The position numbers were made by a program, and so were the translations under genes. Positions 1,282-49,140 of a stretch of DNA of 64,000 bases are shown piece after piece; the first letter of the stretch is position 1; each line of letters opens with the position of its first letter. The notes beneath the pieces were generated by a model. It ran no database searches. It worked only from the letters and a program-made list of their open reading frames with translations, and had not been told where the DNA came from. This DNA is from Pseudovibrio sp. Ad37 (GTDB lineage: Bacteria; Pseudomonadota; Alphaproteobacteria; Rhizobiales; Stappiaceae), in assembly GCF_001623075.1 (NCBI RefSeq), contig NZ_LMCF01000106.1, forward strand, positions 1-64,000, written 5' to 3'.

Positions 1282-2112
1282 CTAGGCCAGCTCTTCACTG
1301 CGTTTTTTGGCAGCTGCAACAGCGCGGGAAAGGAGTGGCGGCATACCGTCCTCTTCGTTCATAAGTACATCGAGCGCCGCGGCTGTGGTGCCATTTGGAG
1401 ATGTCACATTGATGCGCAGCTGGGTAGGGTCGTCGCTGGCATCTTCTGCCAGCTGTCCTGCTCCGCCAACGGTGGCTTTAGCCAGTTGCATCGCCAGTTC
1501 TTCCGGCAGCCCTTGCTCTGCGCCTGCTTTGGCGAGGCACTCGATCAGGTGGAACACATAGGCAGGTCCAGAGCCGGAGACTGCCGTCACAGCATCCATC
1601 TGACTTTCGTTTTCCAGCACAACGGTCTTCCCGACAGCGGCGAGCAGTTCCTGTGCCATAGCCAGATTGCTTTCCGAGCAATGGCTGTTTGGAATGAGTG
1701 CGGTAATGCCGCGTCCAATAGCTGCCGGTGTGTTTGGCATGGCGCGGATGATCGGACTGCCCTCACCTACCAGGGAAAGAAGTGTGGTCAGGTTTGTGCC
1801 TGCTGCAACGGAAATGAAAACGGTGCTGCCACCGCCTAGCGCGACGACCTGAGGGGTTGCATCCCCCATCATCTGTGGCTTCACAGCCAGAATGCACACT
1901 GCGGGAGCTGCTGGCAGTTGCTTGTTCAGGCTTAGGCCGTGATCTTCCAATGACCTCAGCCAGTCAGATGGATAAGGATCAATCACAGTTGTGCTGGAAG
2001 GCAGAACGCCTGCTTCCAACCAGCCCTTCAGCATGGCTGAGCCCATCTTTCCGCAGCCAAGCAAAACGAGGCCGTTTGTGTTTATCTGTTCAATCTGACT
2101 AGGCTTCGACAT
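1282..2112 (-). CDS. proC: Pyrroline-5-carboxylate reductase
   Basis: 276 aa, the usual length. It would reduce 1-pyrroline-5-carboxylate to L-proline with NAD(P)H in the cytosol. A Rossmann fold starts at LLGCGKMGSAMLKGWLEAGV (about residues 17-36); the C-terminal dimerisation domain contains GSGPAYVFHLIE near 180 and VTSPNGTTAAALDVL near 236, both hallmark ProC motifs. It follows the racemase gene by only 3 bases, so the two are co-transcribed. Its place in a catabolic island raises the possibility that it reduces a cyclic imine made from a proline-like substrate of this cluster rather than serving biosynthesis. I cannot tell whether the genome has another proC. Confidence 0.92.
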   Translation of the reverse strand: MSKPSQIEQINTNGLVLLGCGKMGSAMLKGWLEAGVLPSSTTVIDPYPSDWLRSLEDHGLSLNKQLPAAPAVCILAVKPQMMGDATPQVVALGGGSTVFISVAAGTNLTTLLSLVGEGSPIIRAMPNTPAAIGRGITALIPNSHCSESNLAMAQELLAAVGKTVVLENESQMDAVTAVSGSGPAYVFHLIECLAKAGAEQGLPEELAMQLAKATVGGAGQLAEDASDDPTQLRINVTSPNGTTAAALDVLMNEEDGMPPLLSRAVAAAKKRSEELA

Positions 2113-2115
2113 CGA

Positions 2116-2877
2116 TTAATTTCCGTAAGTCGCTAAATTCAAACGCGGGTCATCCAGTTCCAGCGGGAACTTACGCGGAACCAGACCGGATTGGAACCAG
2201 TTCACGAACGTGTAGATGGAATAGACGGGCAATCCGGTGAGTTTGCGGATGTCGTTGGCGTAGGGCACCATATTGGTGCATTCCAGAACGATGGCGCCAA
2301 TGCCTTCGTTTTTAGTTACCAATTCTGCGGCAGCGTCCAGCAGATCCAGACGGGCATCTTCAAAGTTGATGGCGTCATAGTCATCCAGCACTTCGCGGGT
2401 GAAGTTGCGCAGACCATCTGTGCCCACAATCACCGTATCTTCGGGCGCGCCTGCCGCTTTCAGGTGCTCTTTGGTCAATGTTTCTTTGGAGATGGTGATG
2501 ACGCCGACGCGCTTGTTCTTCGGCAGAAGCTGCTGCACGCCTGGGATTTGCATCAAGGAAGACGTTGCGACGGGCACGCCAAGCGCTTCCTTCACCTCGT
2601 CCTGAATGAGAGCCAGAAAACCGCAGTTGGTGGTGATGCCATCGCAGCCTGTCCGCACCAGATCGCGGCCAGCTTCAACAAACAGATCCACCAGCTCACG
2701 CGGATCATTGCGCACCACCTTGTTTGGGGTCGCACCGCGGACCACACGGTAATGCACTGGAAACGGCCATGTCTGGGCATTGCCGATGTCGCCGTAAATG
2801 CGCGGGAACTTGGTTTCCAGCATGAGAATGCCGACTGAGGCACCAAATACGGTCTTGCCTCCATACTCAACGGACAT
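2116..2877 (-). CDS. Asp/Glu/hydantoin racemase-family protein
   Basis: 253 aa. The family consists of cofactor-independent racemases and related lyases that use two cysteines as acid/base pair. Both are visible: Cys85 in TTNCGFL and Cys200 in LECTNM, each followed by a Thr/Asn-rich loop as expected. The N-terminal half has the VGILMLETKFP pattern seen in hydantoin-racemase and AroM-like members. GAGG sits about 10 bases before the ATG. It heads the proC operon and lies behind the GntR regulator, so it probably handles the D/L interconversion of an amino acid or cyclic imino acid imported by the neighbouring TRAP system. Substrate not determinable. Confidence 0.8.
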   Translation of the reverse strand: MSVEYGGKTVFGASVGILMLETKFPRIYGDIGNAQTWPFPVHYRVVRGATPNKVVRNDPRELVDLFVEAGRDLVRTGCDGITTNCGFLALIQDEVKEALGVPVATSSLMQIPGVQQLLPKNKRVGVITISKETLTKEHLKAAGAPEDTVIVGTDGLRNFTREVLDDYDAINFEDARLDLLDAAAELVTKNEGIGAIVLECTNMVPYANDIRKLTGLPVYSIYTFVNWFQSGLVPRKFPLELDDPRLNLATYGN

Positions 2878-2962
2878 AATTCAAAACCTCTTCTATAAAA
2901 TTGGAGGGCAAAGCAGGTTAAGTGTTGGGGACCTGCGACCTGCTTTGCTTTTGGTACTCGCG

Positions 2963-3661
2963 TTAATCTGCTGGAACGTAGAGCTGCGAATAGGCGATGC
3001 GCACGGCTTCGGTGGCCTCGTCGCGGCGGCGTTCAATATGGTGGCGCATGGTGGAAACGGCTTTGTCTTCATCCCGGTTGATCAGGGCGGTCAGCACCAC
3101 ACGGTGGGCCGAAAGCTGGGCTTCCTCCTGCGTAGAAACAGGTGTCTTGCCGCGCAGGTATTTCAAGTCGACAAGACGGATGTAACGCACGCGGTCATTC
3201 AGGTTTTCCAGAATGCGGACCAGCTCGTTGCTTTGAGACAAGGCAGCGATGCGCATGTGATACGCCTCATCCATGCTCAAAAGCTCCATCGGGTCTTCGC
3301 AGCTGTCGTAGTCCGGTTCAGTGGACTTCAAAAACTCCATCAGGTCCTGAAGTTCTTCATCACTGGCTCGGCGGCAAACAAGGCGGACAATCTCCGTCTC
3401 AATGGCGACACGCGCTTCATAAAGGTCGAGAATAAGCTTCGGGCTCAGGGGGCGGCAAAAGAAACCGCGGCCACTCTGGAACGTGAGGAAGCCTTCTGCC
3501 ACGAGTCGATTCAACGCCTCGCGCAGCGGTGTCCGGCTTGCGCCCAACTCTGTGGATAACGCGCTTTCGTTGATACGGGCATCCGGCTTAAGTTCGAAAT
3601 AGGCCGCCATTTTCCGTAGTTTTTCGTAGATGCGGTCCACGTTGCTATCAGCTTTTGTCAT
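2963..3661 (-). CDS. GntR-family regulator, FCD subfamily
   Basis: About 232 aa from the ATG at 3661. A GTG at 3721 in the same frame would add 20 residues that look unlike the family, so I prefer the ATG. The N-terminal winged helix contains NESALSTELGASRTPLREAL; the FCD ligand-binding domain follows, with the metal-binding set visible as D/H in MDEAYHMRIA, H in LSAHRVVL and H in MRHHIERR. It is transcribed divergently from the TPP-enzyme operon, with two small palindromes between, so it most likely represses that operon and releases it on binding a carboxylate from the imported substrate. Confidence 0.88.
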   Translation of the reverse strand: MTKADSNVDRIYEKLRKMAAYFELKPDARINESALSTELGASRTPLREALNRLVAEGFLTFQSGRGFFCRPLSPKLILDLYEARVAIETEIVRLVCRRASDEELQDLMEFLKSTEPDYDSCEDPMELLSMDEAYHMRIAALSQSNELVRILENLNDRVRYIRLVDLKYLRGKTPVSTQEEAQLSAHRVVLTALINRDEDKAVSTMRHHIERRRDEATEAVRIAYSQLYVPAD

Positions 3662-3757
3662 TCCAAAATCGCTCTCAATCCTGCCGTCGCAGGCCCCAAA
3701 AATTGGCTCAGCACTTACCACGTCATAGATGAACTGTACATTCCATTTGACCTGCGC

Positions 3758-3785
3758 TCAATATTGAATATGGTACTGTATACAA
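3758..3785. promoter_or_regulatory. Two candidate GntR operators
   Basis: TCAATATTGA (3758-3767) and CTGTATACAA (3776-3785; core TGTATACA is a perfect palindrome) lie in the 206-base divergent region between the regulator and the TPP-enzyme gene. TNGTATACNA-like sites are typical of FCD-type GntR proteins. A third small palindrome, TGTACA, is at 3735-3740. Binding is inferred. Confidence 0.5.
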
Positions 3786-3867
3786 TTTTGAGTGCAATCG
3801 ATTCTGCATTCTTCGGGTTTAGTAAATTGCCTGCTTAACAGGTGGGACGGGTCTGATAGGTGACACT

Positions 3868-5559
3868 GTGACGAATAAGATGAATGGTGCAGAAGCCATG
3901 GTAAAAATGCTGGAGGCGCAGGGCGTCCAGCACATTTTCGGTCTTTGCGGCGATACAACACTGCCGTTTTATGACGCGATGTATAAGCTTGATCACAAGA
4001 TGACCCACGTTTTGACCCGTGATGAGCGCTGCGCCACTTACATGGCCGATGCGTATTCACGAGTGACCGGACGTCCGGGTGTGTGTGAGGGGCCGTCCGG
4101 TGGTGGCGCAACCTACATTTTGCCGGGTCTGATCGAAGCCTCTGAAAGCTCTTATGCTGTGCTTGGCATTACGACAGACATTTCTGTTGGGTCCTACGGC
4201 AAGTACCCACTGACTGAAGTGGATCAGGAAGCGCTGATGCGTCCGCTGACCAAGTGGAACACCGTGATCAAGCGCGCTGACCACATTCCGCGGATGGTTC
4301 GTAAAGCCTTCCGTGCCATGACAACCGGTCGCTCCGGTGCTGCTCATCTCGGCCTGCCCTACGACATTCAGTATGATGCGGTCGATGCCTCTGACATCTG
4401 GGCAGATCAGCAGCTGACGTCATATCCAGCTTACCCTCAGGCCCCTGCACCAGGTGCTGCTGAAGCCGCGGTTGATGCAATCCTGTCCGCCAAAAAGCCG
4501 CTTATTGTGTGCGGCGGCGGTGTTGTGATTGCTGGCGCGATGGAAGAGCTGGAGCGTCTGGCGTCCCGTCTCGATATTCCGGTTGCAACGTCTATCTCCG
4601 GTCAGGGTTCACTGGCTGAAACCCATCCAAACTGTGTGGGTGTAGTCGGGTCCAATGGCGGAACAGACGAGACATGGGAAGCCATGGCCAATGCGGACCT
4701 TGTGGTGTTCATGGGGGCTCGTGCCGGCTCCACCACCACCTCCCGCTGGGAAGCGCCATCTGCCAAGACCCGTGTGGTTCACTTCGACAACGACCCGATG
4801 GTGATCGGTGCGAACTACGAAGTGGAAGTTGGCGTTGTTGGTGACCTCAAGCTTTCCCTTGCGCAGGTCAACGCTGTTCTCGATAAACGCGATCAGGGCG
4901 CTGACACTTTCGGCGGTGCAGCTGCTGTTGCAGACATCAAGAAACGTAAGTTCGAGATCTTCAACAAACTGGCTCAAAGCGGTGAAGCGCCAATCCGTCC
5001 TGAACGGGTGATCGATGCGATGATGAAGGTGTTGCCGGTTGATGCCACAGTGATCTCCGATCCGGGCACCTCCTGCCCGTACTTCTCTGCTTATTACCAG
5101 CTGCCGCAGTCTGGTCGTTACTTCATCACCAACCGCGCGCATGGCGCATTGGGTTACTCGCTCTCTGCAGCGCTGGGTGCATGGTATGGCCGTCCAACCA
5201 GCAAAGTGGTTGCCATGATGGGTGATGGCTCCTTCGGCTTCACCTGTGGTGAGCTGGAGACTGTGTGCCGCTCCCGTGCGCCAATCACGTACATTGTGTT
5301 CTCTAACTCCAGCTACGGCTGGATTAAAGCGAGCCAGTATGCAGACACAGATGCGCGCTACTACAATGTAGACTTCAACCGCACTGATCAGGCCGCTGTT
5401 GCCGCTGCTTATGGTGTGAAGAGCTGGCGTGTCGAAAATCCTGATGATCTGGAGCGTGTACTCAAAGAGGCAATCGAACATGACGGTCCAACGCTGATTG
5501 ATGTTGTGACGCAGCCTCTTGAAGAAGCAAACGCCCCTGTACGTCGCTGGATGGGATAA
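3868..5559 (+). CDS. Thiamine-diphosphate-dependent acetolactate-synthase-like enzyme
   Basis: 563 aa from a GTG start (an ATG at 3880 is possible). Three domains: N-terminal PYR domain with the cofactor-activating Glu53 in [14 protein letters not shown]; central domain with [16 protein letters not shown]-type loop around 213-230; C-terminal PP domain with the ThDP/Mg motif GDG at 452-454 and Asn480. The sequence resembles acetolactate synthase and benzoylformate-decarboxylase relatives, but the neighbourhood is catabolic and there is no small regulatory subunit, so a 2-oxo-acid decarboxylase or carboligase in breakdown of the imported compound is more likely than branched-chain synthesis. 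It is the first gene of a six-gene operon. Confidence 0.85.
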
Positions 5560-5564
5560 GAGCC

Positions 5565-6719
5565 ATGAACGCTGCACAAAAAATTATCGGCCAAAAGATC
5601 GTTGGGATGGATGTCTGGCACGTACAGCTGCCAGTGAACGCCCGCCGCGACCATGGCATTGGTTCTGTTGAACACGCCGTTGATATTGTCATCCTCCGCT
5701 TAACGGCGGAGGGGGGCGAAACCGGTTGGGGGGAAGCCTCGCCGTGGTCTGTCTTCACAGGTTCTGCAGAAGCCACCTTTGCGGCGCTCGACCGCTACAT
5801 CCGTCCGCTTGTTGTTGGCCGCACCATTGGTGAACGCGCCACGATCATGAAGGACGCCCAAAAGGCGGTTGCTCATTGTACTGAGGCGAAAGCAGCTCTG
5901 GAAACAGCACTGCTCGACCTACAGGGCCGAATCTCTGATTTGCCTGTCTGGGCGCTTCTGGGTGGCAAATGCCGCGATACGATCCCTCTTTCCTGTTCTA
6001 TTGCTGATCCTGATTTCGATCGTGATTTAGCATTGATGGAACGTTTGAAAGAGGATGGTGTGCGCATCATCAAGCTCAAAACCGGCTTCAAAGGCCATGA
6101 GTTTGATATGATGCGTATGGAGCGCCTACGCATGAGCTATCCTGAGTTTTCCATTCGCGTGGATTATAATCAGGGTCTGCACCACGATAGTGCCCTAGCG
6201 TGCGTTCGCGACATCGCAAGTTTTCAACCAGATTTTATTGAACAGCCAGTTGCGCATAACCTTCGGGAACTTATGGCTACTATCCGAAATTCCATCGATG
6301 TGCCGCTTCTTGCAGATGAAAGCATCTTTGGGCCAGAGGATATGCTGACTGCGATTAATATGGGGATAGCTGACGGTGTTTCAGTCAAAATAATGAAGAG
6401 TGGAGGCTTGACTCGGGCCCAAACTGTAGCTCGCATGGCTGCAACCGCTGGTATGAGCGCCTACGGTGGTGACATGTTTGAATCCGGCCTCGCCCACCTT
6501 GCCGGAACGCATATGATTGCTGCAACGCCAGAAATCACTTTAGCTTGTGAGTTTTATCAGGCAAAATACTTCCTAGTAGAAGACCTTATGGAAACGCCAT
6601 TTGAAACGAGTGGCGGCGATGTGATCGTTCCGCAAACGGCAGGCTTGGGAGGCCGTCCGGATCTGGAAAAAGTTGAACACTACGCGATTTCCAAAAGTGC
6701 GGTTATGGGGGCTGCATGA
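5565..6719 (+). CDS. Enolase-superfamily enzyme, muconate-cycloisomerase subgroup
   Basis: 384 aa. The capping domain occupies the first 130 residues; the barrel carries KLK (Lys170, Lys172), the metal ligands Asp200 (RVDYNQ), Glu226 (IEQP) and Asp251 (ADES), and the second base KIMK (Lys275/Lys278). This Lys/Lys arrangement is that of the MLE subgroup, which includes muconate cycloisomerases, dipeptide epimerases and proline-derivative epimerases or dehydratases. The C-terminal third (GGLTRAQ through [14 protein letters not shown]) runs parallel to CatB-type muconate cycloisomerase, but no catechol dioxygenase is nearby, so the activity may be racemisation or dehydration of an amino-acid derivative. 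Starts 5 bases after the TPP gene. Confidence 0.8.
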
Positions 6720-7957
6720 ATAAAAATAATGTCGTTGTCATCGGTGCAGGGATCGTTGGTGTATCAGCAGCTTTATGGTTGAAGCGTGAGGGTCATGATG
6801 TGACCCTCATCGACAAGGGTGAGCCCGGCATGGGCGCGTCCTTTGGCAATGCGTGTGTTCTGGCCAGCTGCTCCGTGGCGCCAGTCACTGCGCCGGGTCT
6901 GATCCTGAAAGGCCCAAAGCTTCTGCTGGATCCAAATTTCCCGCTGTTCCTGCGTTGGAGCTACCTGCCGAAGCTGGCGGGCTGGCTGGCACGTTACCTG
7001 TCACACGCAACGGATAAGGAAACCCGCCGCATCGCGCAGGGGCTGACGCCGATTGTTGGTGACAGTGTGGACCAACACCATGCATTGGTGGACGGGACCA
7101 GCGCTGCAAAGTGGCTGCAGGAAAGCACCTACAGCTTTGCCTACAACGACAGAGCCGCCTTTGAAGCAGACGCATACACCTGGGAACTGCGCCGCAAAGC
7201 CGGATTTGTGCCGGAATTGATTGAAGGTGACGCCGTTCACGAGATGGAGCCAATCCTTGCCAAAAACATCAAACTGCTGGCGTTGATGCGTGATCATGGG
7301 TTCATTCAGGACCCAGGTGCGTATGTTCAGGATCTGGTGCAGATCTTCACGGAAATGGGCGGCACGTTTGTGCAGGCTGAAGTGAAGGATTTCGATCTGT
7401 CGGGCGGCTCGATTTCAGCCGTCATGACTGACAGAGGACGTTTTGAGTGTGATCGTGCCGTTCTGGCAACTGGCGTCTGGTCCAAGCCTTTGATGAATAA
7501 GCTTGGCATCAACGTGCCGCTGGAAGCTGAGCGCGGTTACCATATTTTATTCAAGAACCCGAGCGAGCAGCCGAGCCAGCCAATCATGGTCGCCTCCGGC
7601 AAGTTTGTGGCAACACCAATGGCACAGGGATTACGCTGTGCTGGTGTTGTTGAGTTTGGCGGGCTGGAAGCTGGTGCTTCCAAAGCTCCTCTGGCTCTAC
7701 TACGGAAAAAGGTTCGCGAGAGCTTCCCGCATCTGGAAGCATCAAGCGAAGAAGAATGGTTGGGCTTCCGCCCTGCGCCATCGGACAGTCTCCCCCTCAT
7801 CGGTGAAGTGGGCAAAAGCGGTGTTTATGCAGCGTTTGGGCACCACCACATCGGCCTGACGGGCGGTCCAAAAACCGGGCGGCTGGTCTCTGATCTGATC
7901 AGCGGTAAACGCCCCAATAACGATATAAGTCCTTACGATCCGCAAAGATTTATTTGA
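6716..7957 (+). CDS. FAD-dependent amino-acid oxidase/dehydrogenase (DadA-like)
   Basis: 413 aa. N-terminal dinucleotide fold [20 protein letters not shown] at about residues 5-24, then the [11 protein letters not shown] loop that is typical of DadA and related D-amino-acid dehydrogenases; near the C-terminus [16 protein letters not shown] and the [14 protein letters not shown]-closing motif. Family members oxidise D-amino acids, sarcosine-like N-methyl amines or hydroxyproline isomers, passing electrons to the respiratory chain or to oxygen. It overlaps the previous gene by 4 bases (ATGA), so translation is coupled. Together with the racemase it points to a D- or cyclic amino acid as the pathway substrate. 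Confidence 0.85.
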
Positions 7958-7990
7958 GGGCATCACTAATTTTCTTGGAGGAGAGAACAT

Positions 7991-8971
7991 ATGAAGAAGT
8001 CTAGTCTACTGGTCACCTTGAGTGTTTCCGCTATGGCGTTGGGGGCAACTGCTGCTTCTGCGGAAAAGTGGGACCTGCCAATGGCATACTCAGGGTCCAA
8101 TTTCCATTCAGTAACGGGTGCAGAATTTGCAGCATGTATTACGTCTGGCACTGGTGGTGAAATCGAAGTAACCACTCATCCGGGGGGCTCCTTGTTTAAG
8201 GGCGGCGACATCAAGCGCGCAGTTCAGACAGGTCAGGTGCCAATCGGAGAGCGTCTGCTTTCCGGTCACCAAAACGAAAATGCCTTGTTCGGTGTGGATT
8301 CCGTTCCATTCCTCGCAACATCTTTTGATGATGCGGCAAAGCTTTGGACTGCTGCAAAGCCAGCGCTTGAAAAGGTTCTTGGCGAACAGAACCTGACCCT
8401 GCTGTATTCTGTGCCATGGCCTCCTCAGGGTCTGTACTTCAAAAATGCAGTCAACTCTGTTGCTGACATGGAAGGCATTAAATTCCGCTCTTACAACACC
8501 GCAACTGCGCGTCTTGCTGAGCTGACAGGCATGCTGCCAGTTTCCATTGAAGCAGCTGAAATCTCTCAGGCGTTTGCAACCGGTGTTGCTGACTCCATGG
8601 TCTCCTCCGGTGCAACTGGTTACGATCGTAAAGTTTGGGAAAGCCTCAACTACTTCTACGAAGTGGATGCATGGCTGCCACGCAACTACATGCTCGTCAA
8701 CTCTGATGTGTGGTCTGGTGTTTCTGAAAAGAACAAAGGCATCATTCAGGGCTGTGCGGCAACAGCAGAAGCAGCTGGCCTCAAGCGTTCTATCGACTAC
8801 ACAAACTTCACCCTTGATGGCCTGCGTGAAGGCGGCATGAAGGTTGAAAAGGGTAGTGACCAGATGAAAGCTGACCTGCAGGAAATTGGTGCAACCATGA
8901 CTGCAGAATGGCTTGAAGCTGCTGGTGACGATGGCAAGGCTGTTGTCAGCACCTTCAAAGCAATGAAATAA
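7991..8971 (+). CDS. TRAP transporter periplasmic binding protein (DctP family)
   Basis: 326 aa with a cleavable signal peptide (KKSSLLVTLSVSAMALGAT, cut after ASA at about residue 24). The mature part has the DctP fold, with the pattern GIKFRSYNTATARLAEL around 160-176, where the family Arg binds the ligand carboxylate. It delivers substrate to the DctQ/DctM membrane pair encoded just downstream. A strong GGAGGAGAG precedes the ATG. A hairpin with a T-run follows the stop, consistent with the binding protein being made in excess of the membrane parts. Substrate is probably a carboxylate or amino acid used by the upstream enzymes. Confidence 0.93.
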   Translation: MKKSSLLVTLSVSAMALGATAASAEKWDLPMAYSGSNFHSVTGAEFAACITSGTGGEIEVTTHPGGSLFKGGDIKRAVQTGQVPIGERLLSGHQNENALFGVDSVPFLATSFDDAAKLWTAAKPALEKVLGEQNLTLLYSVPWPPQGLYFKNAVNSVADMEGIKFRSYNTATARLAELTGMLPVSIEAAEISQAFATGVADSMVSSGATGYDRKVWESLNYFYEVDAWLPRNYMLVNSDVWSGVSEKNKGIIQGCAATAEAAGLKRSIDYTNFTLDGLREGGMKVEKGSDQMKADLQEIGATMTAEWLEAAGDDGKAVVSTFKAMK

Positions 8972-8977
8972 GCACGC

Positions 8978-9017
8978 AAAAGCCGGAGAACCTTTTGGAA
9001 CTCCGGCTTTTCTTTTT
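8978..9017 (+). terminator. Intra-operon terminator/attenuator after dctP
   Basis: AAAAGCCGGAG (8978-8988) and CTCCGGCTTTT (9001-9011) form a perfect 11-bp stem followed by TCTTTTTT. It has the form of a full intrinsic terminator, yet the dctQ and dctM genes follow on the same strand, so partial read-through must supply them. Confidence 0.8.
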
Positions 9018-9032
9018 TCGAGGGGGAGAACA

Positions 9033-9566
9033 ATGAAGCTGACACGCGCACTGCGCTTAGGGCTGGATGGGATCTACAAGACAGCTGGAGTTCTTTCCGC
9101 GCTTTGTCTGATTGCCATCCTCGGACTGATTGTCGTGCAGATGCTGGCACGTTGGACGGGAGAGGTCTTTCCGGGCGCCGCAGAATATGCAGGCTATGCC
9201 ATGGCCGCCGCCAGTTTCCTTGCATTTGCCAATGCCTTGAACAAGGGCATCCATATTCGCGTATCCATCCTGCACCAAATGCTGGGCAAGACCGCACAGC
9301 GCATTCTGGAAATCTGGTGTTTTGCCATTGGCTCCGCCACGATCTGGTACTTCGTGTACTACGCCTACCGTTTCGTTTACTGGTCCCACAAGTTCAATGA
9401 CATCAGTCAGGGACAGGACCGCACACCGCTTTGGATCCCACAGGGCTTTATGTTCCTTGGTGCCTTGATCCTTGCGATTGCTCTCACAGACCACCTCCTT
9501 CAACTCATATTCACTGGCAAGCACCGTATTGCGCCTGAACTTGAAGAAGCAGTTGCCGGAGAATAA
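9033..9566 (+). CDS. TRAP transporter small permease (DctQ family)
   Basis: 177 aa with four hydrophobic segments, roughly residues 17-38, 54-72, 95-120 and 135-160. The motif GAAEYAGYAMAAASFLAFANALNKG before the third helix is the usual DctQ signature region, where the acidic residue and following small residues contact DctM. Good ribosome-binding site (GAGGGGGAG) 5-8 bases before the ATG. It functions as the structural partner of the large permease 5 bases downstream. Confidence 0.9.
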   Translation: MKLTRALRLGLDGIYKTAGVLSALCLIAILGLIVVQMLARWTGEVFPGAAEYAGYAMAAASFLAFANALNKGIHIRVSILHQMLGKTAQRILEIWCFAIGSATIWYFVYYAYRFVYWSHKFNDISQGQDRTPLWIPQGFMFLGALILAIALTDHLLQLIFTGKHRIAPELEEAVAGE

Positions 9567-9571
9567 GAGCA

Positions 9572-10885
9572 ATGGAAAATATAAGCATTATCATTCTGTT
9601 CCTGTTTGTCATGTTCACCTTGCTTGGCACCGGCGTCTGGGTCGGTCTGGCACTTATGGGTGTGGCATGGGTTGGCATGGAACTGTTCACCACCCGCCCT
9701 GTTGGCGACGTGATGTTGACGACCATTTGGTCGGCCTCCTCCTCCTGGACACTGACGGCGCTGCCGCTGTTCATCTGGATGGGTGAAATCCTGTATCGAA
9801 CCCGATTATCGGAAGATATGTTCCGTGGCCTTGCCCCTTGGATGGCCCGCCTTCCTGGCGGTCTGGTTCACACCAACATTGTGGGCTGTACAGTCTTTGC
9901 AGCGGTCTCTGGTTCTTCTGCCGCGACACTGACCACCGTTGGCAAGATGTCTATCCCTGAGCTGCGTAAGCGTGATTATCCCGAAAAGATGATCATTGGC
10001 ACGTTGGCTGGTGCAGCAACGCTGGGTCTGATGATCCCGCCATCTCTGACGCTGATAGTTTATGGTGTGACCATCAACGAGAGTATCTCCAAGCTGTTCT
10101 TTGCAGGCATTATGCCGGGCATCGTGCTGGCTGGCATGTTCATGGCGTATGTGGCCATCACCTCCAAAGTCTCTTCTAAATGGAATCCGAAAGCGGAACC
10201 TAAGATGAGCTTTACTGAGAAGGTGAAGAACACCCGCTTCCTGCTGCCTGTGATCCTGCTGATCCTCATTGTGATTGGCTCCATGTATCTGGGCTACGCA
10301 ACGGCGACAGAAGCTGCAGCCTTTGGTGTGATTGGAAGTCTGATCCTTGCAGCTTCACAGGGTTCGCTGTCCTGGAAAAGTTTCACGAGCAGTTTGATGG
10401 GGGCGACCTACACCTCCTCTATGATTGCACTGATCCTTGCCGGTGCTGCGTTCCTGTCGCTTTCCATGGGCTTTACGGGTCTGCCGCGCGGTCTGGCTGA
10501 CATGATCGCAACGCTGGAGCTCAGCCGCTTTGAGCTGCTGATGGTACTGCTGGTGTTCTACGTGATCCTCGGCATGTTCCTGGATGGGATTTCGTCCGTG
10601 GTGCTGACCATGGCGGTGGTGGAACCAATGATCCGTCAGGCTGGTATTGACCTGATATGGTTTGGTATCTTCATTGTGGTGGTGGTTGAGATGGCGCAGA
10701 TCACGCCGCCGATCGGGTTTAACCTGTTCGTCCTGCAAGGCATGACCAACTATCAGATGGGGTTCATTGCGCGTGCAGCGTTCCCGATGTTCCTGATCAT
10801 GGTTGCGATGGTCTTTGTTCTGATCGCGTTCCCTGAGGTTGCCACATGGCTGCCTGAGAACATCCGCAGCAGGCCCGGAGGTTAG
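9572..10885 (+). CDS. TRAP transporter large permease (DctM family)
   Basis: 437 aa, a polytopic membrane protein with about 12 hydrophobic segments. Recognisable DctM landmarks are GCTVFAAVSGSSAATLTTVGKM near residue 110, GAATLGLMIPPSLTLIVYG near 150 and a second repeat with ITPPIGFNLFVLQG near 375; these paired re-entrant hairpins form the Na+/substrate site of the elevator-type transporter. It closes the operon that began with the TPP enzyme. Confidence 0.93.
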   Translation: MENISIIILFLFVMFTLLGTGVWVGLALMGVAWVGMELFTTRPVGDVMLTTIWSASSSWTLTALPLFIWMGEILYRTRLSEDMFRGLAPWMARLPGGLVHTNIVGCTVFAAVSGSSAATLTTVGKMSIPELRKRDYPEKMIIGTLAGAATLGLMIPPSLTLIVYGVTINESISKLFFAGIMPGIVLAGMFMAYVAITSKVSSKWNPKAEPKMSFTEKVKNTRFLLPVILLILIVIGSMYLGYATATEAAAFGVIGSLILAASQGSLSWKSFTSSLMGATYTSSMIALILAGAAFLSLSMGFTGLPRGLADMIATLELSRFELLMVLLVFYVILGMFLDGISSVVLTMAVVEPMIRQAGIDLIWFGIFIVVVVEMAQITPPIGFNLFVLQGMTNYQMGFIARAAFPMFLIMVAMVFVLIAFPEVATWLPENIRSRPGG

Positions 10886-11918
10886 CGCCTCCTGAACCAC
10901 CTGCCGTAAGTGCCGATCTCTGGATACTCTGATCTACGAAAGTAGGTCGGGGTATTTACTTAGAGTAAGCAATCTGAAGTTCATCAGCTTAGTTTGATTA
11001 AACCATTAAGTGCGCACAGACGCTGGATTCCTCATTTCTAGATTTCCGGATTTGTCCTCTTCAACTGACACTATTATCCACTTTGATTGCCCTGATTTGC
11101 CGTTGTGTGGTCACTTTTAAGGTAAATATATGACCTAAACGGCACCTTGGTGATATATTTTCACTATAAAATGAGTGTCACCCTCATATTTTTTGTGTTG
11201 ACACGCACATGAGTGTGACATGCATTACGTCACATGGGGTAACTTACTCAAACGTAAGGTGATTTTTATCGATAAATTTATATGTAAGATAAATTTAATA
11301 TATCATGAGTATAAAAATACTGATATTTCAATAATACCTAGAGTTGTATTTACACTAAACATTTGGATAACATTTATTCTAGATCTAAGAGTATAGATTT
11401 CTTCGCCACATTTATGCCCCAATTACGGCCAAATATTGAACTCAGATCAGGTCACCTCCCAAAACGGGGATGTGTAACTGGCGGATTGCATCGTATCTGC
11501 AATGTGTATTCAAAGTGGTATGATGAGATTAATGCAAGTTATGCATAGGGGATTTGATTAGGACTTCAGGTAACTGAAGTTGGTTGGGTGACACTAAACG
11601 TTACTCAAAACGTTTGTCGCTATGAGGCATGCTCATTGTGAGCATTTAGCGAAGCTGGGAGGCTAGGCTATGACATGTATTCGTAGTGTAGACTTGCATT
11701 CCGAATGCGGCATTAGCAGTATTCAGGTGCGTCCAGGGACTTCTCCGAAATAGAGATCCGACTTGGATTGGGACCCTTTGAAGCCAACACGTGACGTGTA
11801 GCCATCTGAAGGACCTCCTGCCAGCGGTATCACACCAACAATTTAACATCACTGTACCTCGGAGTGCGCTCCGGGAGCGGTGAAACTTATCTAACTTTTG
11901 TCTGAAAGGGATAAAGAC
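10886..11918 (+). promoter_or_regulatory. Long AT-rich non-coding leader upstream of the secretion cluster
   Basis: About 1 kb without a credible gene. It holds several structured elements: a TTGACA (11198-11203) with TGCATT 17 bases on as a weak promoter; TGTGAC-N9-GTCACA (11214-11234) overlapping that -10; ATGAG-N7-CTCAT (11171-11187); and perfect small hairpins at 11563-11580 (7-bp stem, GTAA loop), 11629-11645 (7-bp stem) and 11860-11873 (5-bp stem, close to the ribosome-binding site of the next gene). The base composition is clearly more A/T-rich than neighbouring genes, particularly 11100-11400. It could be an extensive regulatory leader or hide a small RNA. Confidence 0.45.
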
Positions 11919-12272
11919 ATGGGCTGGTGGAATCCATTCAAAGCAATCGCAAACGTCGTAACCAAAGCTGTTAGCGCAGTGATTGAAACCGTCTCCGATG
12001 CATTTGGTCAGCATGAGCTTGGTCAGAAGATCGCAGGCGTATTTGAAGCTGTGGTTGACACTATTGTTGACGTTGTTGTGGACATAGCCGTGGGGGTTGC
12101 CACATCAAACCCAGTTACGGCCGTTGTCAGCGTCATCACCAACATCGCTGAAGGTATTAAGGACGTTTATGACGCCCTCAACCCTGCATCTGAAACTGTG
12201 GAAGTTGCTGCAGCAGATGCACCAGTGCTGGAAGGCAATGCAGACTACGGTTCTGATGACATGTTGATGTAA
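11919..12272 (+). CDS. Small amphipathic protein, candidate type I secretion substrate
   Basis: 117 aa from the ATG at 11919 (AAAGGG 9-14 bases upstream); a TTG at 11898 is a weaker alternative. I do not recognise a family. The chain starts MGWWNPFKAIANVVTKAVSA and consists of two or three helices in which Val/Ala/Ile alternate with Asp/Lys/Glu; residues 20-95 contain no Cys, no glycine-rich RTX nonapeptides and no signal peptide. The C-terminus is acidic with a final hydrophobic group (NADYGSDDMLM), which is how C-terminal type I secretion signals often look. It lies directly upstream of an ABC exporter and HlyD adaptor. The W-rich N-terminal helix resembles membrane-active leaderless bacteriocins, but that similarity is only general. 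Confidence 0.6.
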   Translation: MGWWNPFKAIANVVTKAVSAVIETVSDAFGQHELGQKIAGVFEAVVDTIVDVVVDIAVGVATSNPVTAVVSVITNIAEGIKDVYDALNPASETVEVAAADAPVLEGNADYGSDDMLM

Positions 12273-12279
12273 TCAGAAC

Positions 12280-12317
12280 GGTTCGGGCGCCACGAGCTTG
12301 GGTGTGGCGCCCGAACC
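12280..12317 (+). terminator. 14-bp perfect stem-loop between the small protein and its exporter
   Basis: GGTTCGGGCGCCAC (12280-12293) pairs perfectly with GTGGCGCCCGAACC (12304-12317), loop of 10 bases. It is not followed by a T-run, so it is more likely an mRNA stabiliser or attenuator setting a high ratio of small protein to exporter. It also argues against a TTG start at 12298 for the ABC gene, which would lie inside the hairpin. Confidence 0.75.
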
Positions 12318-12351
12318 AACCCAGCATAAAAACAACAAGCTGGAGGGTATT

Positions 12352-14076
12352 TTGGGTAAGTCGTTACAAGAGCACACATCCTATATTTCCAACGCCTTTC
12401 GTAAACTTTATCGGGCGTTTTGGGGCATTGGTGGCATCAGCATGTTAATCAACCTGCTTATGCTGACTGGCCCTTTGTTCATGCTGCAGATCTATGATCG
12501 CGTCTTGTCCAGCAGCTCTGTGCCAACGCTTGTTGTTCTCAGCCTGTTTGTGGCTGTGCTTTATATCTTCTACGGAATTCTGGATGGTCTGCGGAACCGG
12601 CTGTTGCTGCGTGTTGGTCAACACGTGGATGAGCAGCTCACCGGTCTGGCATTTGAAACTTCGACCCGTGTCCCGCTGGTTATGGGTGCTGAGGGCGAAC
12701 GCTCCAGACCTGTCAGCGATCTGGACTCCATCCGGCAGTTCCTGTCCGGCTCCGGTCCTTCCGCGATCTTCGATATGCCATGGATGCCGCTCTACTTGGG
12801 CATCGTGTTTCTGTTTCACCCGCTTTTGGGCACCACGGCTCTCATTGGCGCCTTGTTCATCTGTGCCTTGATTGCGCTGAACGAGTTGTCCTCTCGTCGC
12901 CCGGCTGCAAACACAGCTGTTGAAGCCAACAAGCGGACTACATTGATTGAAGCGTGCCGCCGCAATGCCGAGAGCATTGAGGCCATGGGCATGATCGACC
13001 ACTTGCGTGACCGGTGGGAGGATAACAATGATGTCTTCCTTGGTCGCCAGCGGGCAGCCTCTGACCGGTCCAACATCTTCACCACCATGATCAAGACCCT
13101 GCGGTTCATGCTGCAGTCCGGTATTCTTGCCCTTGGGGCGTGGCTGGTTATTCAGCAGGAAGTCTCTGCAGGCGTTATGATCGCGTCCTCCATTATGACG
13201 GCCCGTGCACTGGCTCCGGTTGAGATGGCAATCGTCAACTGGCGTGGATTTGTGGCCGCCAGAGTTGGCATTTCGCGCCTTCAGGAAATCTTTGCCTCAC
13301 AAGCAAAGCCTAAGGAACGGGTGTCCATTCCGTTCCCGCAGGAGTCGGTTGTTGTTGAAGGCTTGTCCTGTGGACCAATCGCAGCCAAAGAAGCCTTCGT
13401 CAAAAACGTTTCTTTGGAACTGAAAGCTGGCGATGGTCTGGGCATCATCGGGCATTCGGGGTCCGGCAAGTCAACGCTGACGAGAGCGATGGTCGGCATC
13501 ACCAATCCTCTGAAGGGCTCGATCCGTTTTGATGGCGCTGAGCTGGACCAGTGGAGCGCGATGGATCGCGGTGATTTCATCGGGTATCTGCCGCAGGACA
13601 TTCAGCTCTTTGATGGCACCATCGCCGAGAACATTCAGCGTTTCAAGCCGGATGAAGACAGCGACAAGCTGATTGAAGCCGCCCGCATGGCCAACGTACA
13701 CGATCTGATTGTGAGCTTGCCGGAAGGCTACAACACCGTCATCGGCGCAACTGGCAACGGCCTTTCTGGTGGTCAGCGTCAGCGGATTGCACTGGCGCGT
13801 GCGCTTTATGGCAACCCGTTCCTGATCGTACTGGATGAGCCAAACTCCAATCTGGATGCGCAAGGTGAAGCAGCGCTGACCAACGCCATCCACGATATGC
13901 GTGAGCGTGGTTCCATCGTCATCGTGGTGGCACACCGTCCGGCAGCGACGTCAGCAGTCGATCAGATCCTTGTGATGAATGAGGGTGAAGCGGAAGCCAT
14001 TGGTGCAAAAGACAAGATCATGAAGCAGGTGATAGCTCCGCTTCGCAAGCCGCAGGAGGTCGCGTTAAATGGCTAG
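12352..14076 (+). CDS. Type I secretion ABC transporter/ATPase (HasD/PrtD type)
   Basis: About 574 aa from a TTG at 12352 preceded by GGAGGG; this start fits the family N-terminus better than upstream TTGs. Six-helix membrane domain opens with NLLMLTGPLFMLQIYDRVL, a hallmark of HasD/PrtD/RsaD exporters. There is no N-terminal C39 peptidase domain, so substrates are not cut at a double-glycine leader but are recognised by an uncleaved C-terminal signal. ATPase domain: Walker A GHSGSGKST at about 367, signature LSGGQRQR at about 471, Walker B LIVLDEP near 491, H-loop VAHRP near 527. The outer-membrane TolC partner is not in the window. Overlaps the adaptor gene by 8 bases. Confidence 0.93.
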   Translation: MGKSLQEHTSYISNAFRKLYRAFWGIGGISMLINLLMLTGPLFMLQIYDRVLSSSSVPTLVVLSLFVAVLYIFYGILDGLRNRLLLRVGQHVDEQLTGLAFETSTRVPLVMGAEGERSRPVSDLDSIRQFLSGSGPSAIFDMPWMPLYLGIVFLFHPLLGTTALIGALFICALIALNELSSRRPAANTAVEANKRTTLIEACRRNAESIEAMGMIDHLRDRWEDNNDVFLGRQRAASDRSNIFTTMIKTLRFMLQSGILALGAWLVIQQEVSAGVMIASSIMTARALAPVEMAIVNWRGFVAARVGISRLQEIFASQAKPKERVSIPFPQESVVVEGLSCGPIAAKEAFVKNVSLELKAGDGLGIIGHSGSGKSTLTRAMVGITNPLKGSIRFDGAELDQWSAMDRGDFIGYLPQDIQLFDGTIAENIQRFKPDEDSDKLIEAARMANVHDLIVSLPEGYNTVIGATGNGLSGGQRQRIALARALYGNPFLIVLDEPNSNLDAQGEAALTNAIHDMRERGSIVIVVAHRPAATSAVDQILVMNEGEAEAIGAKDKIMKQVIAPLRKPQEVALNG

Positions 14077-15385
14077 AAATACCGACAATTCCTACGATAT
14101 CGGCGCAAGCATCACCCGCCATCTCAAATGGGGCGGCGCTCTGGCAGCACTCCTCATCTTTGGTGCAGGCACCTGGACAGTTGTGACGGAAATTTCCGGC
14201 GCGGTTGTTGCTCCGGCAACCATCGTTGTTGAAACCAGCACCAAGAGCGTGCAGCACCGTGATGGCGGCATCGTCAATCAAATCCTCGTCAAGAACGGTG
14301 ATCCGGTGAAGGCCGGAGAACTTGTCCTGCGGTTGGATGATACTCTCACCCGCTCCAATCTGGCTGTGCTGACCAATCAGCTTGATGAACTTTATGCGCA
14401 GGAATCCCGGCTGACCTCTGAGATACAGGGCCGCACTGAGATTACGTTCAAGCAACGGGCAAAATCTCCCTTGCACCGTGCACATCTGATGATGATTGAA
14501 GAAACCCAGCGCAATATGATGGAAGCGCGGAAGAAAAATCATCTGAGCAAGAAAGAGCAGCTGGAAACCCAGATCGGTCAGTTTGAAAAGCAGATCGACG
14601 GCCTAGAGCTGCAACGGGATGCAAAACAGAACGAAGTGGACCTGATCAACACCGAACTGGGTGGCTTGGAATCTTTGCGCAAAAAGAAGCTGGTGACCGA
14701 GTCCCGTGTCATGGCGTTCCAGCGTGAGCGTAGCTCTCTGGAAGGCGAGCTTGGCGGCATCATTGCCCAGATCGCCCGCTCCGGAGAGGCGATCAGCGAA
14801 CGCCGGGTCATGATCATACAATCAGATGAAGAACTGCGCTCCAACAATCTGGAACAACTGCAGCAGACCCGTGCCCAGATCTCTGAGCTTGAAGAACGAC
14901 GTATTGCAGCGCAGGACGAGCTGCGCCGGACGGAAATCCGAGCACCTCAAAACGGCAAGGTGTTTGATCTGGCCATTCACACCATCGGCGGCGTCATCAT
15001 GGGCGGCGAAGTGGTGATGAAGATCGTGCCGGAAGAAGACCAGCTCATCGTGGAAGCTAAAGTGCAGCCGGTGGATGTGGATCAGATCAATCCCAATCAG
15101 GAAGCAACCATTCGCCTGCCCGCGTTTGACAAGCGCACCACACCGGAACTCAAGGCGCGGCTGAAAACCATCTCGCCCGATCTGGTGCAGGACCCGCGCA
15201 CAGGCAGCACCTATTATCTGGCCGAGCTGGCCATTCCTGAAGAGGAACTGGAGCGTTTGGACGGCAAATCCCTCATTCCGGGCATGCCGGTTGAGGCGTT
15301 TATCAAGACAGAAGACCGGTCTGTTCTGTCCTATCTGATCAAACCAATGATGGACCAGATCGCACATGCGATGAGAGAGACTTGA
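14069..15385 (+). CDS. Type I secretion membrane-fusion protein (HlyD/PrtE family)
   Basis: 438 aa. One N-terminal membrane segment (about residues 20-42), then a lipoyl half-motif GGIVNQILVKNGDPVKAGELVLRLDD near 72-97, a long coiled coil of alternating Lys/Glu/Gln heptads from about 100 to 290, the second lipoyl half (RAPQNGKVFDLAIHTIGGVI near 295) and a beta-barrel domain ending in the PGMPVEAFIKT motif near 405. It bridges the inner-membrane exporter to a TolC-type channel. The gene starts within the last codons of the ABC gene, indicating coupled translation. Confidence 0.93.
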   Translation: MARNTDNSYDIGASITRHLKWGGALAALLIFGAGTWTVVTEISGAVVAPATIVVETSTKSVQHRDGGIVNQILVKNGDPVKAGELVLRLDDTLTRSNLAVLTNQLDELYAQESRLTSEIQGRTEITFKQRAKSPLHRAHLMMIEETQRNMMEARKKNHLSKKEQLETQIGQFEKQIDGLELQRDAKQNEVDLINTELGGLESLRKKKLVTESRVMAFQRERSSLEGELGGIIAQIARSGEAISERRVMIIQSDEELRSNNLEQLQQTRAQISELEERRIAAQDELRRTEIRAPQNGKVFDLAIHTIGGVIMGGEVVMKIVPEEDQLIVEAKVQPVDVDQINPNQEATIRLPAFDKRTTPELKARLKTISPDLVQDPRTGSTYYLAELAIPEEELERLDGKSLIPGMPVEAFIKTEDRSVLSYLIKPMMDQIAHAMRET

Positions 15386-35941: not shown

Positions 35942-35984
35942 GATCTACTGGTAGGTTCACCTGCTCAGATCTTCAACTTGATTT

Positions 35985-36011
35985 GGAAAGGGAGCCATTG
36001 GGCTCCTTTCC
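35985..36011 (+). promoter_or_regulatory. Stem-loop between dctP and dctQ
   Basis: GGAAA-g-GGAGCC (35985-35996) and GGCTCC-TTTCC (36001-36011) form an 11-bp stem with one bulged G and a 4-base loop. There is no long T-run, so transcript stabilisation of the dctP part is likelier than termination. Confidence 0.6.
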
Positions 36012-36062
36012 TGCCCATCCTGTTCTGGGTCCCCTTTATTTTGAGGGAGCCGACTGCACAAA

Positions 36063-36626: not shown

Positions 36627-36635
36627 GGGCTAAGC

Positions 36636-37907: not shown

Positions 37908-37924
37908 AAGATGGGCCCATAAAA

Positions 37925-43694: not shown

Positions 43695-43698
43695 GACT

Positions 43699-45257: not shown

Positions 45258-45345
45258 GGCTCCCTCCCTAAAGATACCAATAAAATTATTTTGTTGGATG
45301 AAGAACGGGAACCTCCCAGTCCCCATTCTTCAGGCGGTCCTAGTC

Positions 45346-45888: not shown

Positions 45889-45907
45889 AAGACTCTAACC
45901 GAGGCGA

Positions 45908-49125: not shown

Positions 49126-49140
49126 CGTCACTATCCTAAA

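What the first reader, a model, noticed from the sequence alone, without database searches (positions are those of the whole stretch)
1282..10885. Uncharacterised catabolic island: racemase, proC, TPP enzyme, MLE-type enzyme, amino-acid oxidase and TRAP importer
Eight metabolic and transport genes in two divergent units around one GntR regulator form an import-to-central-metabolism route I cannot match to a described pathway. Asp/Glu racemase, DadA-like oxidase, MLE-subgroup enzyme and P5C reductase together suggest a D- or cyclic amino acid (hydroxyproline, proline-betaine or similar); the TPP enzyme would then decarboxylate or ligate a 2-oxo acid product. ProC in such a catabolic setting is unusual.
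Basis: partly seen in the sequence, partly recalled or inferred. Interest (0 to 1): 0.55.

Follow-up and report, generated by a model that had tools for sequence, protein, structure and literature searches.

The report
Pyroglutamate uptake and breakdown gene island
A marine bacterium carries a conserved block of importer and enzyme genes that most likely takes up pyroglutamate (5-oxoproline, the ring form of glutamate) and feeds it into metabolism, which gives several enzymes of unknown role, some with solved structures, a testable candidate substrate.

Summary
The window is from a Pseudovibrio genome. The set is real and conserved: in the 80 best homologous loci (capped list) the enolase-family (MLE-type) gene is beside the FAD oxidase in 80 and a DctP in 78. 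proC is a Pseudovibrio-only addition.

The substrate is most likely 5-oxoproline (pyroglutamate), not hydroxyproline or a betaine. (1) The importer's binding protein is closest to three solved pyroglutamate binders (Z 41-42; next 34). (2) In 15 of 80 loci 5-oxoprolinase genes (pxpBCA) lie in the same block. (3) A MarR-type regulator found inside 19 of 80 loci has relatives across Alphaproteobacteria that sit next to 5-oxoprolinase or this importer type in 24 of 30 loci, including this genome's own 5-oxoprolinase. (4) 49 of 50 block genomes have a 5-oxoprolinase (no block-free control for PxpA). Hydroxyproline-type genes lie elsewhere in this genome.

Mechanism beyond uptake is inferred. The MLE-type enzyme keeps both catalytic lysines and is my candidate 5-oxoproline racemase. 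The FAD oxidase and TPP enzyme would make and decarboxylate a 2-oxo acid. No activity was tested. My searches of the held library found no paper describing this gene set or a 5-oxoproline racemase.

The parts
1282..2112 (-). Second proC paralogue (pyrroline-5-carboxylate reductase family); Pseudovibrio-specific addition, role in the pathway unknown
   Evidence: TIGR00112 240 bits, cut-off 196.75; second copy in genome at C219, 43% identical; beside the island only in Pseudovibrio among the loci seen
2116..2877 (-). AGrac: Asp/Glu/hydantoin racemase family protein, two invariant cysteines
   Evidence: NF005679 316 bits, cut-off 231; C85 and C200 invariant in 20 sequences; predicted fold closest to allantoin racemase Z 19.4 and hydantoin racemase Z 17.7; orthologue in 50 of 50 block genomes examined
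2963..3721 (-). GntR-family (FCD) regulator, divergent from the TPP operon
   Evidence: PF00392 and PF07729; conserved between AGrac and TPP
3776..3787 (.). Putative GntR operator CTGTATACAATT in the GntR-TPP intergenic region
   Evidence: GTATAC core in 39 of 48 homologous intergenic regions (36 of 45 without three duplicate fetches); the nine without it are all 52 bp or shorter
3868..5559 (+). ThDP (TPP) enzyme of the acetolactate-synthase class; candidate 2-oxo-acid decarboxylase
   Evidence: PF02775, PF00205, PF02776; below the curated cut-offs of all 25 families shown of 58 hit; orthologues at 57% or more in 43 of 80 loci
5565..6719 (+). MLE-subgroup enolase; candidate 5-oxoproline racemase
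   Evidence: top PDB hits 3i6e, 3i6t, 3my9; K170, K172, D200, E226, D251, K275 invariant in 20 sequences; 105 of 500 bits for cis-3-hydroxyproline dehydratase and 211 of 335 for muconate cycloisomerase
6716..7957 (+). DadA/glycine-oxidase-like FAD oxidoreductase, in every homologous locus with the MLE gene
   Evidence: PF01266 188 bits; 80 of 80 loci; best PDB relatives glycine oxidases and L-amino acid deaminases, weak
7991..8971 (+). DctP: TRAP solute-binding protein of the pyroglutamate-binding subfamily
   Evidence: 52% identical to 6wgm (pyroglutamate-specific by its title), Z 41.9; 2pfy and 2pfz (DctP7, DctP6) Z 41.2; next rows Z 34.3 or less; only one of this type in the genome
9033..9566 (+). 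DctQ small TRAP permease
   Evidence: PF04290
9572..10885 (+). DctM large TRAP permease
   Evidence: TIGR00786 367 bits, cut-off 268

Best explanation
It is a 5-oxoproline (pyroglutamate) uptake and catabolism island. DctPQM imports 5-oxoproline (homology, strong). The MLE-type enzyme interconverts D- and L-5-oxoproline by proton abstraction and return at C2 (inferred: 5-oxoproline is an internal N-acyl amino acid, the substrate type of the related N-acylamino acid racemases). The L-form is opened to L-glutamate by a 5-oxoprolinase, here encoded elsewhere in the genome and in some other bacteria inside the block. The D-branch would use AGrac and the DadA-like oxidase to reach a 2-oxo acid, which the TPP enzyme decarboxylates (inferred, weakest part). 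In Pseudovibrio the GntR regulator probably controls the TPP-MLE-DadA-DctPQM operon through a CTGTATACA site (inferred from the conserved motif). My confidence by part: substrate is 5-oxoproline or a very close lactam 0.77 (lowered from 0.8 on checking the DctP tree); MLE is a 5-oxoproline racemase 0.5; oxidase-decarboxylase branch as drawn 0.3.
For: DctP: 360 bits to 6wgm, then DctP6/DctP7 at 267 and 231, then 67; title of 6wgm reads specific for pyroglutamate, Z 41.9, against 34.3 for the next rows; 6wgm is nearer to island DctPs (49-59%) than to a second TRAP type (39-42%). pxpB, pxpC and pxpA are in the same block in 15 of 80 loci. Those 15 genomes have a single PxpA in 14, and no OPLAH orthologue in 14. 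49 of 50 block genomes examined have PxpA or OPLAH. MarR/HTH_27 regulator: between MLE and DadA in 19 of 80 loci; in a survey of 289 alphaproteobacterial genomes its relatives are next to OPLAH in 14, the TRAP type in 8 and pxp in 2 of 30 loci, including divergent from this genome's OPLAH. Among 35 examined genomes without pxp in the block, OPLAH is present in 5 of 5 with that MarR in the block and 4 of 30 without (Fisher p 0.0004, not corrected for relatedness). MLE catalytic residues invariant. AGrac orthologue in 50 of 50; in 14 of 14 genomes with pxp in the block and AGrac outside it, AGrac-GntR sits on another contig with the TPP gene (10) or a second TPP type (4).
Against: No activity or ligand binding was measured. 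OPLAH also occurs in 70 of 84 relatives without a close MLE, and PxpA was not searched in block-free marine genomes, so the presence of a 5-oxoprolinase is not shown to be specific. In the unrooted DctP tree the MLE-block sequences lie together on one side and the three known binders on the other, with L156 and the second TRAP type among them: binding is inferred from the nearest relative, not bracketed. DadA is in every block, also where pxp is present, and a plain L/D-5-oxoproline to glutamate route does not need it; flavin oxidation next to an amide nitrogen would be unusual. Twelve loci hold AGrac without a TPP gene beside it and eight hold neither AGrac nor pxp, some cut by contig ends; one locus (L156) holds AGrac, TPP, DadA and TRAP without MLE. 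A separate pxpABC array with the second TRAP type and MarR exists in one Leisingera genome (L281), so the island TRAP may serve a related compound there. One block genome (L116) shows neither PxpA nor an OPLAH orthologue. PxpB and PxpC of the one block scored fall below the curated 5-oxoprolinase cut-offs.
Confidence: 0.58

Rival explanations
1. The block degrades a close relative of 5-oxoproline (a hydroxylated or otherwise substituted five-ring lactam acid, or cyclised 2-oxoglutaramate), and the MLE-type enzyme is a dehydratase or cycloisomerase rather than a racemase. 5-Oxoprolinase-type enzymes and the MarR regulator would be present because 5-oxoproline or an analogue arises as an intermediate.
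For: DadA is present in 80 of 80 loci and TPP or a second TPP type in 49, which plain 5-oxoproline does not require; MLE also conserves the glutamate found in muconate cycloisomerases (E329); one genome has a separate pxpABC-TRAP-MarR array (L281); more distant MLE relatives sit with amino-acid ABC importers, FAD oxidases and TPP or aminotransferase genes.
Against: Three solved relatives bind pyroglutamate itself (titles); apart from LysR, a membrane protein, MarR and pxp, I recognised no recurring gene within the block that would remove a substituent (mostly judged by eye).
Confidence: 0.23
2. Two neighbouring but unrelated modules: TRAP-MLE-DadA for one compound and AGrac-GntR-TPP for another.
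For: AGrac-GntR with a TPP gene is found away from the MLE block in 14 of 14 such genomes examined; GntR-TPP also occurs without MLE nearby in two genomes of another class (L154, L155).
Against: AGrac is present in 50 of 50 block genomes examined and within the same locus as MLE-DadA-TRAP in 58 of 80; in Pseudovibrio TPP and MLE are 5 bp apart in one apparent operon.
Confidence: 0.12
3. One reading: hydroxyproline isomers, D-proline or betaines.
For: Generic cyclic amino acid logic; DadA-like oxidases also act in hydroxyproline pathways (recalled); a proC paralogue is in the Pseudovibrio operon.
Against: Proline-racemase-family genes lie elsewhere, at C222 beside a DapA-like and an FAD-oxidase frame (by eye) and at C133; MLE far below the cis-3-hydroxyproline dehydratase cut-off; DctP with pyroglutamate binders; proC absent from the conserved block.
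Confidence: 0.05

Closest known systems
Bordetella pertussis DctP6 and DctP7 (2pfz, 2pfy) and the marine pyroglutamate TRAP receptor 6wgm
   Same: Same subfamily by sequence and fold (36-53% identity to the window's DctP; Z 41-42); TRAP-type import.
   Different: In Bordetella the genes are reported near a eukaryotic-type 5-oxoprolinase (passage in PMC13274462); I saw no mention there of an MLE-DadA-AGrac-TPP set, but I read passages only and did not examine the Bordetella locus.
pxpTABC-pxpR of Corynebacterium glutamicum (PMC13274462)
   Same: Importer, 5-oxoprolinase and a divergent GntR-type regulator for 5-oxoproline; PxpR binds 5-oxoproline (abstract and passages).
   Different: Importer is an APC-type secondary transporter; no MLE, FAD oxidase, racemase or TPP gene is mentioned in the passages read; operator agattgttcaacaatct differs from the CTGTATACA site here.
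Structural-genomics 'muconate cycloisomerases' 3i6e, 3i6t, 3my9
   Same: Closest solved relatives of the island MLE (589, 583 and 312 bits). A Ruegeria pomeroyi block with pxpBCA (L088) encodes an MLE identical to the 3i6e chain at 350 of 369 positions.
   Different: Named muconate cycloisomerase in the entries; I recognised no catechol gene among recurring neighbours (mostly judged by eye).
Allantoin and hydantoin racemases (5lg5, 3qvk, 2eq5)
   Same: Best predicted-fold matches of AGrac, racemases of five-ring N-heterocycles (Z 17.7-19.4).
   Different: Only 16-20% sequence identity; no allantoin or hydantoin gene among the profile-searched genes of the island.

Membership tests
Pyroglutamate-binding TRAP solute receptor subfamily | Sequence and fold closest to solved pyroglutamate binders, clearly separated from other solved TRAP receptors | tested here: met
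   6wgm, 2pfy, 2pfz Z 41-42; other rows 34.3 or less; 454, 348, 303 bits against 78 for the next
Pyroglutamate-binding TRAP solute receptor subfamily | Binds 5-oxoproline | not testable with these tools
   needs binding assay
Enolase superfamily, MLE subgroup | KxK on strand 2, D/E/D metal ligands, lysine on strand 6 | tested here: met
   K170, K172, D200, E226, D251, K275 invariant in 20 sequences; the role of each residue is recalled from family knowledge
Muconate cycloisomerase | Curated TIGR02534 cut-off 334.95 bits | tested here: not met
   210.8 bits
cis-3-hydroxy-L-proline dehydratase | Curated NF043002 cut-off 500 bits | tested here: not met
   105.2 bits
N-acetyl-D-glutamate racemase DgcA | Curated NF042940 cut-off 400 bits | tested here: not met
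   92.3 bits
Two-cysteine Asp/Glu/hydantoin racemase family | Two conserved cysteines in the Asp/Glu racemase fold | tested here: met
   C85 and C200 invariant; fold matches; racemase activity untested
D-amino acid dehydrogenase DadA (NF001933) | Curated cut-off 383 bits | tested here: not met
   193.2 bits; the wider DAO family PF01266 is met
Acetolactate synthase large subunit (TIGR00118) | Curated cut-off 538 bits | tested here: not met
   381.3 bits
Pyrroline-5-carboxylate reductase | Curated TIGR00112 cut-off 196.75 bits | tested here: met
   240.1 bits
5-oxoproline catabolic system | A 5-oxoprolinase encoded in the genome, with or apart from the importer | tested here: met
   no PxpA in own genome; OPLAH-type 5-oxoprolinase at C218 with divergent MarR; pxpBCA inside the block in 15 of 80 loci
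Hydroxyproline catabolic cluster | Proline-racemase-family epimerase or dehydratase (PF05544) in the cluster | tested here: not met
   the two PF05544 genes of the genome are on other contigs

The most novel reading that the evidence does not exclude
The block encodes the first dedicated route for D-5-oxoproline: a new racemase in the enolase superfamily and an oxidase-decarboxylase branch that can carry the lactam into central metabolism without a 5-oxoprolinase. [quoted passage not shown]
Probability: 0.33. Interest if true: 0.75.

Novelty: new variant of a known kind. Interest (0 to 1): 0.52.

Why it matters
[quoted passage not shown] The block recurs across marine Alphaproteobacteria (Pseudovibrio, Ruegeria, Leisingera, Roseibium, Nisaea and others), so it may matter for marine organic nitrogen. 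It also gives a concrete substrate to test for three enolase structures whose deposited names look doubtful (3i6e, 3i6t, 3my9), for a racemase subfamily that NCBI's model names only 'hypothetical protein' (NF005679) and for a TPP enzyme below the cut-offs of the 25 best-matching curated families.

Tried and rejected
Hydroxyproline and betaine reading: rejected on DctP relatives, MLE scores and separate PF05544 loci. The genes beside PF05544 were named by eye from translated starts; the profile search I tried there failed.

Arylmalonate decarboxylase neighbourhoods (MR/MLE plus TRAP, PMC4996985, passages) looked similar at first. AGrac here has two invariant cysteines where, as I recall, arylmalonate decarboxylase has one, and its fold is nearer allantoin racemase; I set it aside, though the family itself was not excluded.

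AGrac and PxpABC looked mutually exclusive in the blocks (only L131 has both), which suggested that one replaces the other. The genome-wide search showed AGrac in 50 of 50 genomes, so I dropped that idea.

OPLAH presence as a marker for the block: not discriminating (17 of 17 genomes with an MLE of 47% or more, of which G089 has only the TPP gene beside it, and 70 of 84 without). Operator comparison with PxpR: different sequence. phmmer of AGrac against the PDB gave nothing.

Literature searches that gave no description of this set in what was listed: TRAP transporter/pyroglutamate/muconate cycloisomerase (8 of 8 listed); DctP6/DctP7/pyroglutamic (10 of 3,780); D-5-oxoproline and 5-oxoproline racemase terms (40 of 73; the two racemase terms occur in none of the 40); Ruegeria with 5-oxoproline terms (0); Pseudovibrio with pyroglutamic (0); enolase/racemase/thiamine/TRAP (15 of 18); oxoprolinase/TRAP/racemase/Roseobacter (5 of 5); OpaE/racemase/oxoprolin (15 of 31); oxoglutaramate/5-oxoproline (12 of 117). 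The library lacks most subscription papers. The original DctP6/DctP7 structure paper was not read.

Choices. In the tree of DctP I used 13 island sequences of the 88 full-length ones held plus the window, three of the second TRAP type and three PDB chains. For some searches I used 50 of the 80 loci: all 15 with pxp and 35 of the 65 without, picked by hand, mostly isolates with sequence held beyond DctM. 'OPLAH orthologue' means 55% identity or more; weaker HyuA/HyuB hits (30-36%) were not counted; L065's OPLAH is split over two contigs and was counted. Block membership uses identity thresholds that I set. The name SBF for the membrane protein after DctM was given by eye; it had no family hit.


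Full report
What is there. proC and AGrac (Asp/Glu/hydantoin racemase family) are on the minus strand behind a GntR/FCD regulator. On the plus strand follow a TPP enzyme, an MLE-subgroup enolase, a DadA-like FAD oxidase and a TRAP importer DctPQM. TPP to MLE is 5 bp and MLE overlaps DadA, so TPP to DctM looks like one operon. The genome is a Pseudovibrio: the window's MLE is 99% identical to that of P. ascidiaceicola.

The set is conserved. A profile of 11 MLE sequences found 486 relatives in species genomes, of which the best 80 (66-99% identity) were returned. In those 80 loci the FAD oxidase is present in 80, DctP in 78, DctQ and DctM in 76, AGrac in 58, GntR in 48, TPP (57% identity or more) in 43 and a second TPP type in 6. 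A divergent LysR gene is present in 67 and a membrane protein after DctM in 59; neither is in the four Pseudovibrio loci among them. A MarR-type gene is present in 19, pxpB, pxpC and pxpA in 15, and proC in 4. Several loci lie on short contigs, so the true absences are fewer; in the 58 loci of 20.6 kb or more, MLE, DadA and DctPQM are present in all 58. proC is beside the block only in Pseudovibrio. It is a second copy, 43% identical to the other ProC gene of the genome. More divergent blocks (MLE 47-49%) in genomes of the same order keep AGrac, GntR, TPP, DadA and DctPQM in four of five loci (L041, L042, L044, L045); the fifth, L043, has only TPP beside MLE.

The substrate: importer. The DctP sequence hits 6wgm (360 bits), 2pfz (267) and 2pfy (231) far ahead of any other solved TRAP receptor (67). 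With a profile of 21 sequences the gap is 454, 348 and 303 bits against 78. The predicted structure (mean pLDDT 83.6) gives Z 41.9, 41.2 and 41.2 for these three and at most 34.3 for the other rows. The entry titles name pyroglutamate as the ligand of all three; 6wgm is called specific for it. 6wgm is nearer to island DctPs (49-59% identity) than to a second TRAP type found beside the MarR regulator (39-42%), while 2pfy is nearer to that second type (45-50% against 33-42%). In the unrooted tree of 20 sequences, however, the MLE-block sequences lie together, and the three binders, the second type and L156 (a block without MLE) lie beyond them. Pyroglutamate binding is thus read from the nearest solved relative, not bracketed. 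The window's DctP is the only one of this type in the genome; the next best match is 24% identical.

The substrate: 5-oxoprolinase. In 15 of 80 loci the genes after the importer include PxpB, PxpC and PxpA homologues, the bacterial 5-oxoprolinase (families checked on one locus, L079). There PxpA passes a curated cut-off, while PxpB and PxpC fall below theirs. In those 15 genomes there is just one PxpA in 14 and no OPLAH orthologue in 14, so in 13 of them the block holds the only recognised 5-oxoprolinase. Among all 50 block genomes examined, 46 have PxpA, 10 have an OPLAH orthologue, and 49 have one or the other. No block-free marine genomes were searched for PxpA, so this is not shown to be specific. 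The own genome has no PxpA but an OPLAH-type enzyme of 1215 residues at C218.

The substrate: regulator. The MarR/HTH_27 protein that lies between MLE and DadA in 19 of 80 loci has a 56% identical relative divergent from the own OPLAH gene. Searching 289 alphaproteobacterial genomes with that relative gave 30 genomes, 32 matches and 30 fetched loci. OPLAH is adjacent in 14 (one being the query's own), TRAP genes of this family in 8, pxp genes in 2 and none of these in 6. Of the 35 examined genomes without pxp in the block, OPLAH is present in 5 of 5 that have the MarR in the block and in 4 of 30 that do not (Fisher p 0.0004). The genomes are related, so the p value is only a guide. The regulator thus follows 5-oxoproline enzymes and importers.

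Against hydroxyproline. Two proline-racemase-family genes lie on other contigs. One has, by eye, a DapA-like and an FAD-oxidase frame beside it, the usual hydroxyproline layout as I recall it. The MLE scores 105 bits against a cut-off of 500 for cis-3-hydroxyproline dehydratase.

The enzymes. The MLE protein is closest to 3i6e, 3i6t and 3my9, all named muconate cycloisomerase in their entries. A Ruegeria pomeroyi block that includes pxpBCA (L088) has an MLE identical to the 3i6e chain at 350 of 369 positions. In 20 sequences K170, K172, D200, E226, D251 and K275 are invariant. Both lysines needed for two-base racemisation in this subgroup are therefore present (the assignment of roles is recalled). 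5-Oxoproline has no leaving group next to C2, so the chemistry open to such an enzyme on it is racemisation; this is inference. AGrac keeps two cysteines (C85, C200), and its model (pLDDT 88.7) is nearest to allantoin and hydantoin racemases (Z 19.4 and 17.7), ahead of Asp/Glu racemases at 16.7 or less. An orthologue is present in 50 of 50 block genomes examined. In the 14 genomes with pxp in the block and AGrac outside it, AGrac-GntR sits on another contig with TPP (10) or the second TPP type (4), 14 of 14. In these genomes the working set is therefore TRAP, MLE, FAD oxidase, AGrac, GntR, a TPP enzyme and a 5-oxoprolinase. For the 12 loci with AGrac and no TPP beside it I did not look for TPP elsewhere.

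What is not explained. Simple L- or D-5-oxoproline to glutamate needs only the importer, a racemase and a 5-oxoprolinase. The FAD oxidase is nevertheless in all 80 loci and a TPP gene in 49. Distant MLE relatives on plasmids of Tistrella, Thioclava and Shinella sit with an amino-acid ABC importer, an FAD oxidase and either a TPP gene (Tistrella, Shinella), or a 2-hydroxyacid dehydrogenase and an aminotransferase (Thioclava), with a succinate-semialdehyde dehydrogenase nearby in Shinella. That pattern suggests that the FAD enzyme makes a 2-oxo acid. If it acts on the D-branch here, the 2-oxo acid could be 2-oxoglutarate from D-glutamate or 2-oxoglutaramate from D-5-oxoproline; I cannot choose. 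The P5C reductase paralogue may turn glutamate-derived P5C into proline, or reduce an imine; this is a guess.

Regulation. The GntR-TPP intergenic region of the window holds CTGTATACAATT (3776-3787). The GTATAC core is in 39 of 48 homologous regions, 38 of them as TGTATACA; three of the 48 (L039, L150, L151) are second fetches of genomes already counted, which leaves 36 of 45. The nine without it are all 52 bp or shorter. A rough estimate for a given 6-mer in about 90 bp is 0.02 (arithmetic, no shuffled control was run), so this is unlikely to be chance. In C. glutamicum a divergent GntR regulator, PxpR, binds 5-oxoproline with a KD of 726 nM (abstract of PMC13274462), which makes a 5-oxoproline-sensing GntR here plausible; its operator is different.

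Novelty. Import of pyroglutamate by TRAP systems and the two 5-oxoprolinases are known. The MLE-FAD-AGrac-TPP set tied to them is not described in what the searches listed, within a library that lacks most subscription papers and with long result lists seen only in part. I rate it a new variant of a known kind, with a plausible new enzyme activity inside it.

Noticed in passing
window 11898-15385: A 124-residue frame is followed by an ABC exporter-like protein (12298-14076) and an HlyD-like protein (14069-15385); the small protein may be its secreted cargo. Named by eye; the small frame and exporter also follow the island in four other Pseudovibrio loci (L033-L036).
   Followed up: no
window 34952-38779: A second TRAP system next to a PEP-mutase/isocitrate-lyase-like gene (by eye).
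   Followed up: no
window 42378-50436: A third TRAP system with an FAD monooxygenase, a metallo-beta-lactamase-fold protein and a fumarylacetoacetase-like protein, suggesting aromatic-acid catabolism (by eye).
   Followed up: no
L281 7532-13661: Leisingera sp. ANG59: pxpA, pxpC, pxpB, DctM, DctQ, DctP and a divergent MarR in one operon-like array, a second, simpler 5-oxoproline system in a genome that also has the MLE block.
   Followed up: partly
L147, L148, L149: MLE relatives (42-45%) on plasmids with an amino-acid ABC importer instead of TRAP, plus FAD oxidase and TPP or aminotransferase genes: possibly the same logic for another amino acid.
   Followed up: partly
L153 7947-12868: M20-family amidohydrolase, TPP enzyme, MLE and an RraA-like aldolase together; no DadA or TRAP match in the stretch.
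   Followed up: no
L156 8074-15557: AGrac, GntR, TPP, DadA and DctPQM without MLE in the block; whether MLE lies elsewhere in that genome was not checked.
   Followed up: no
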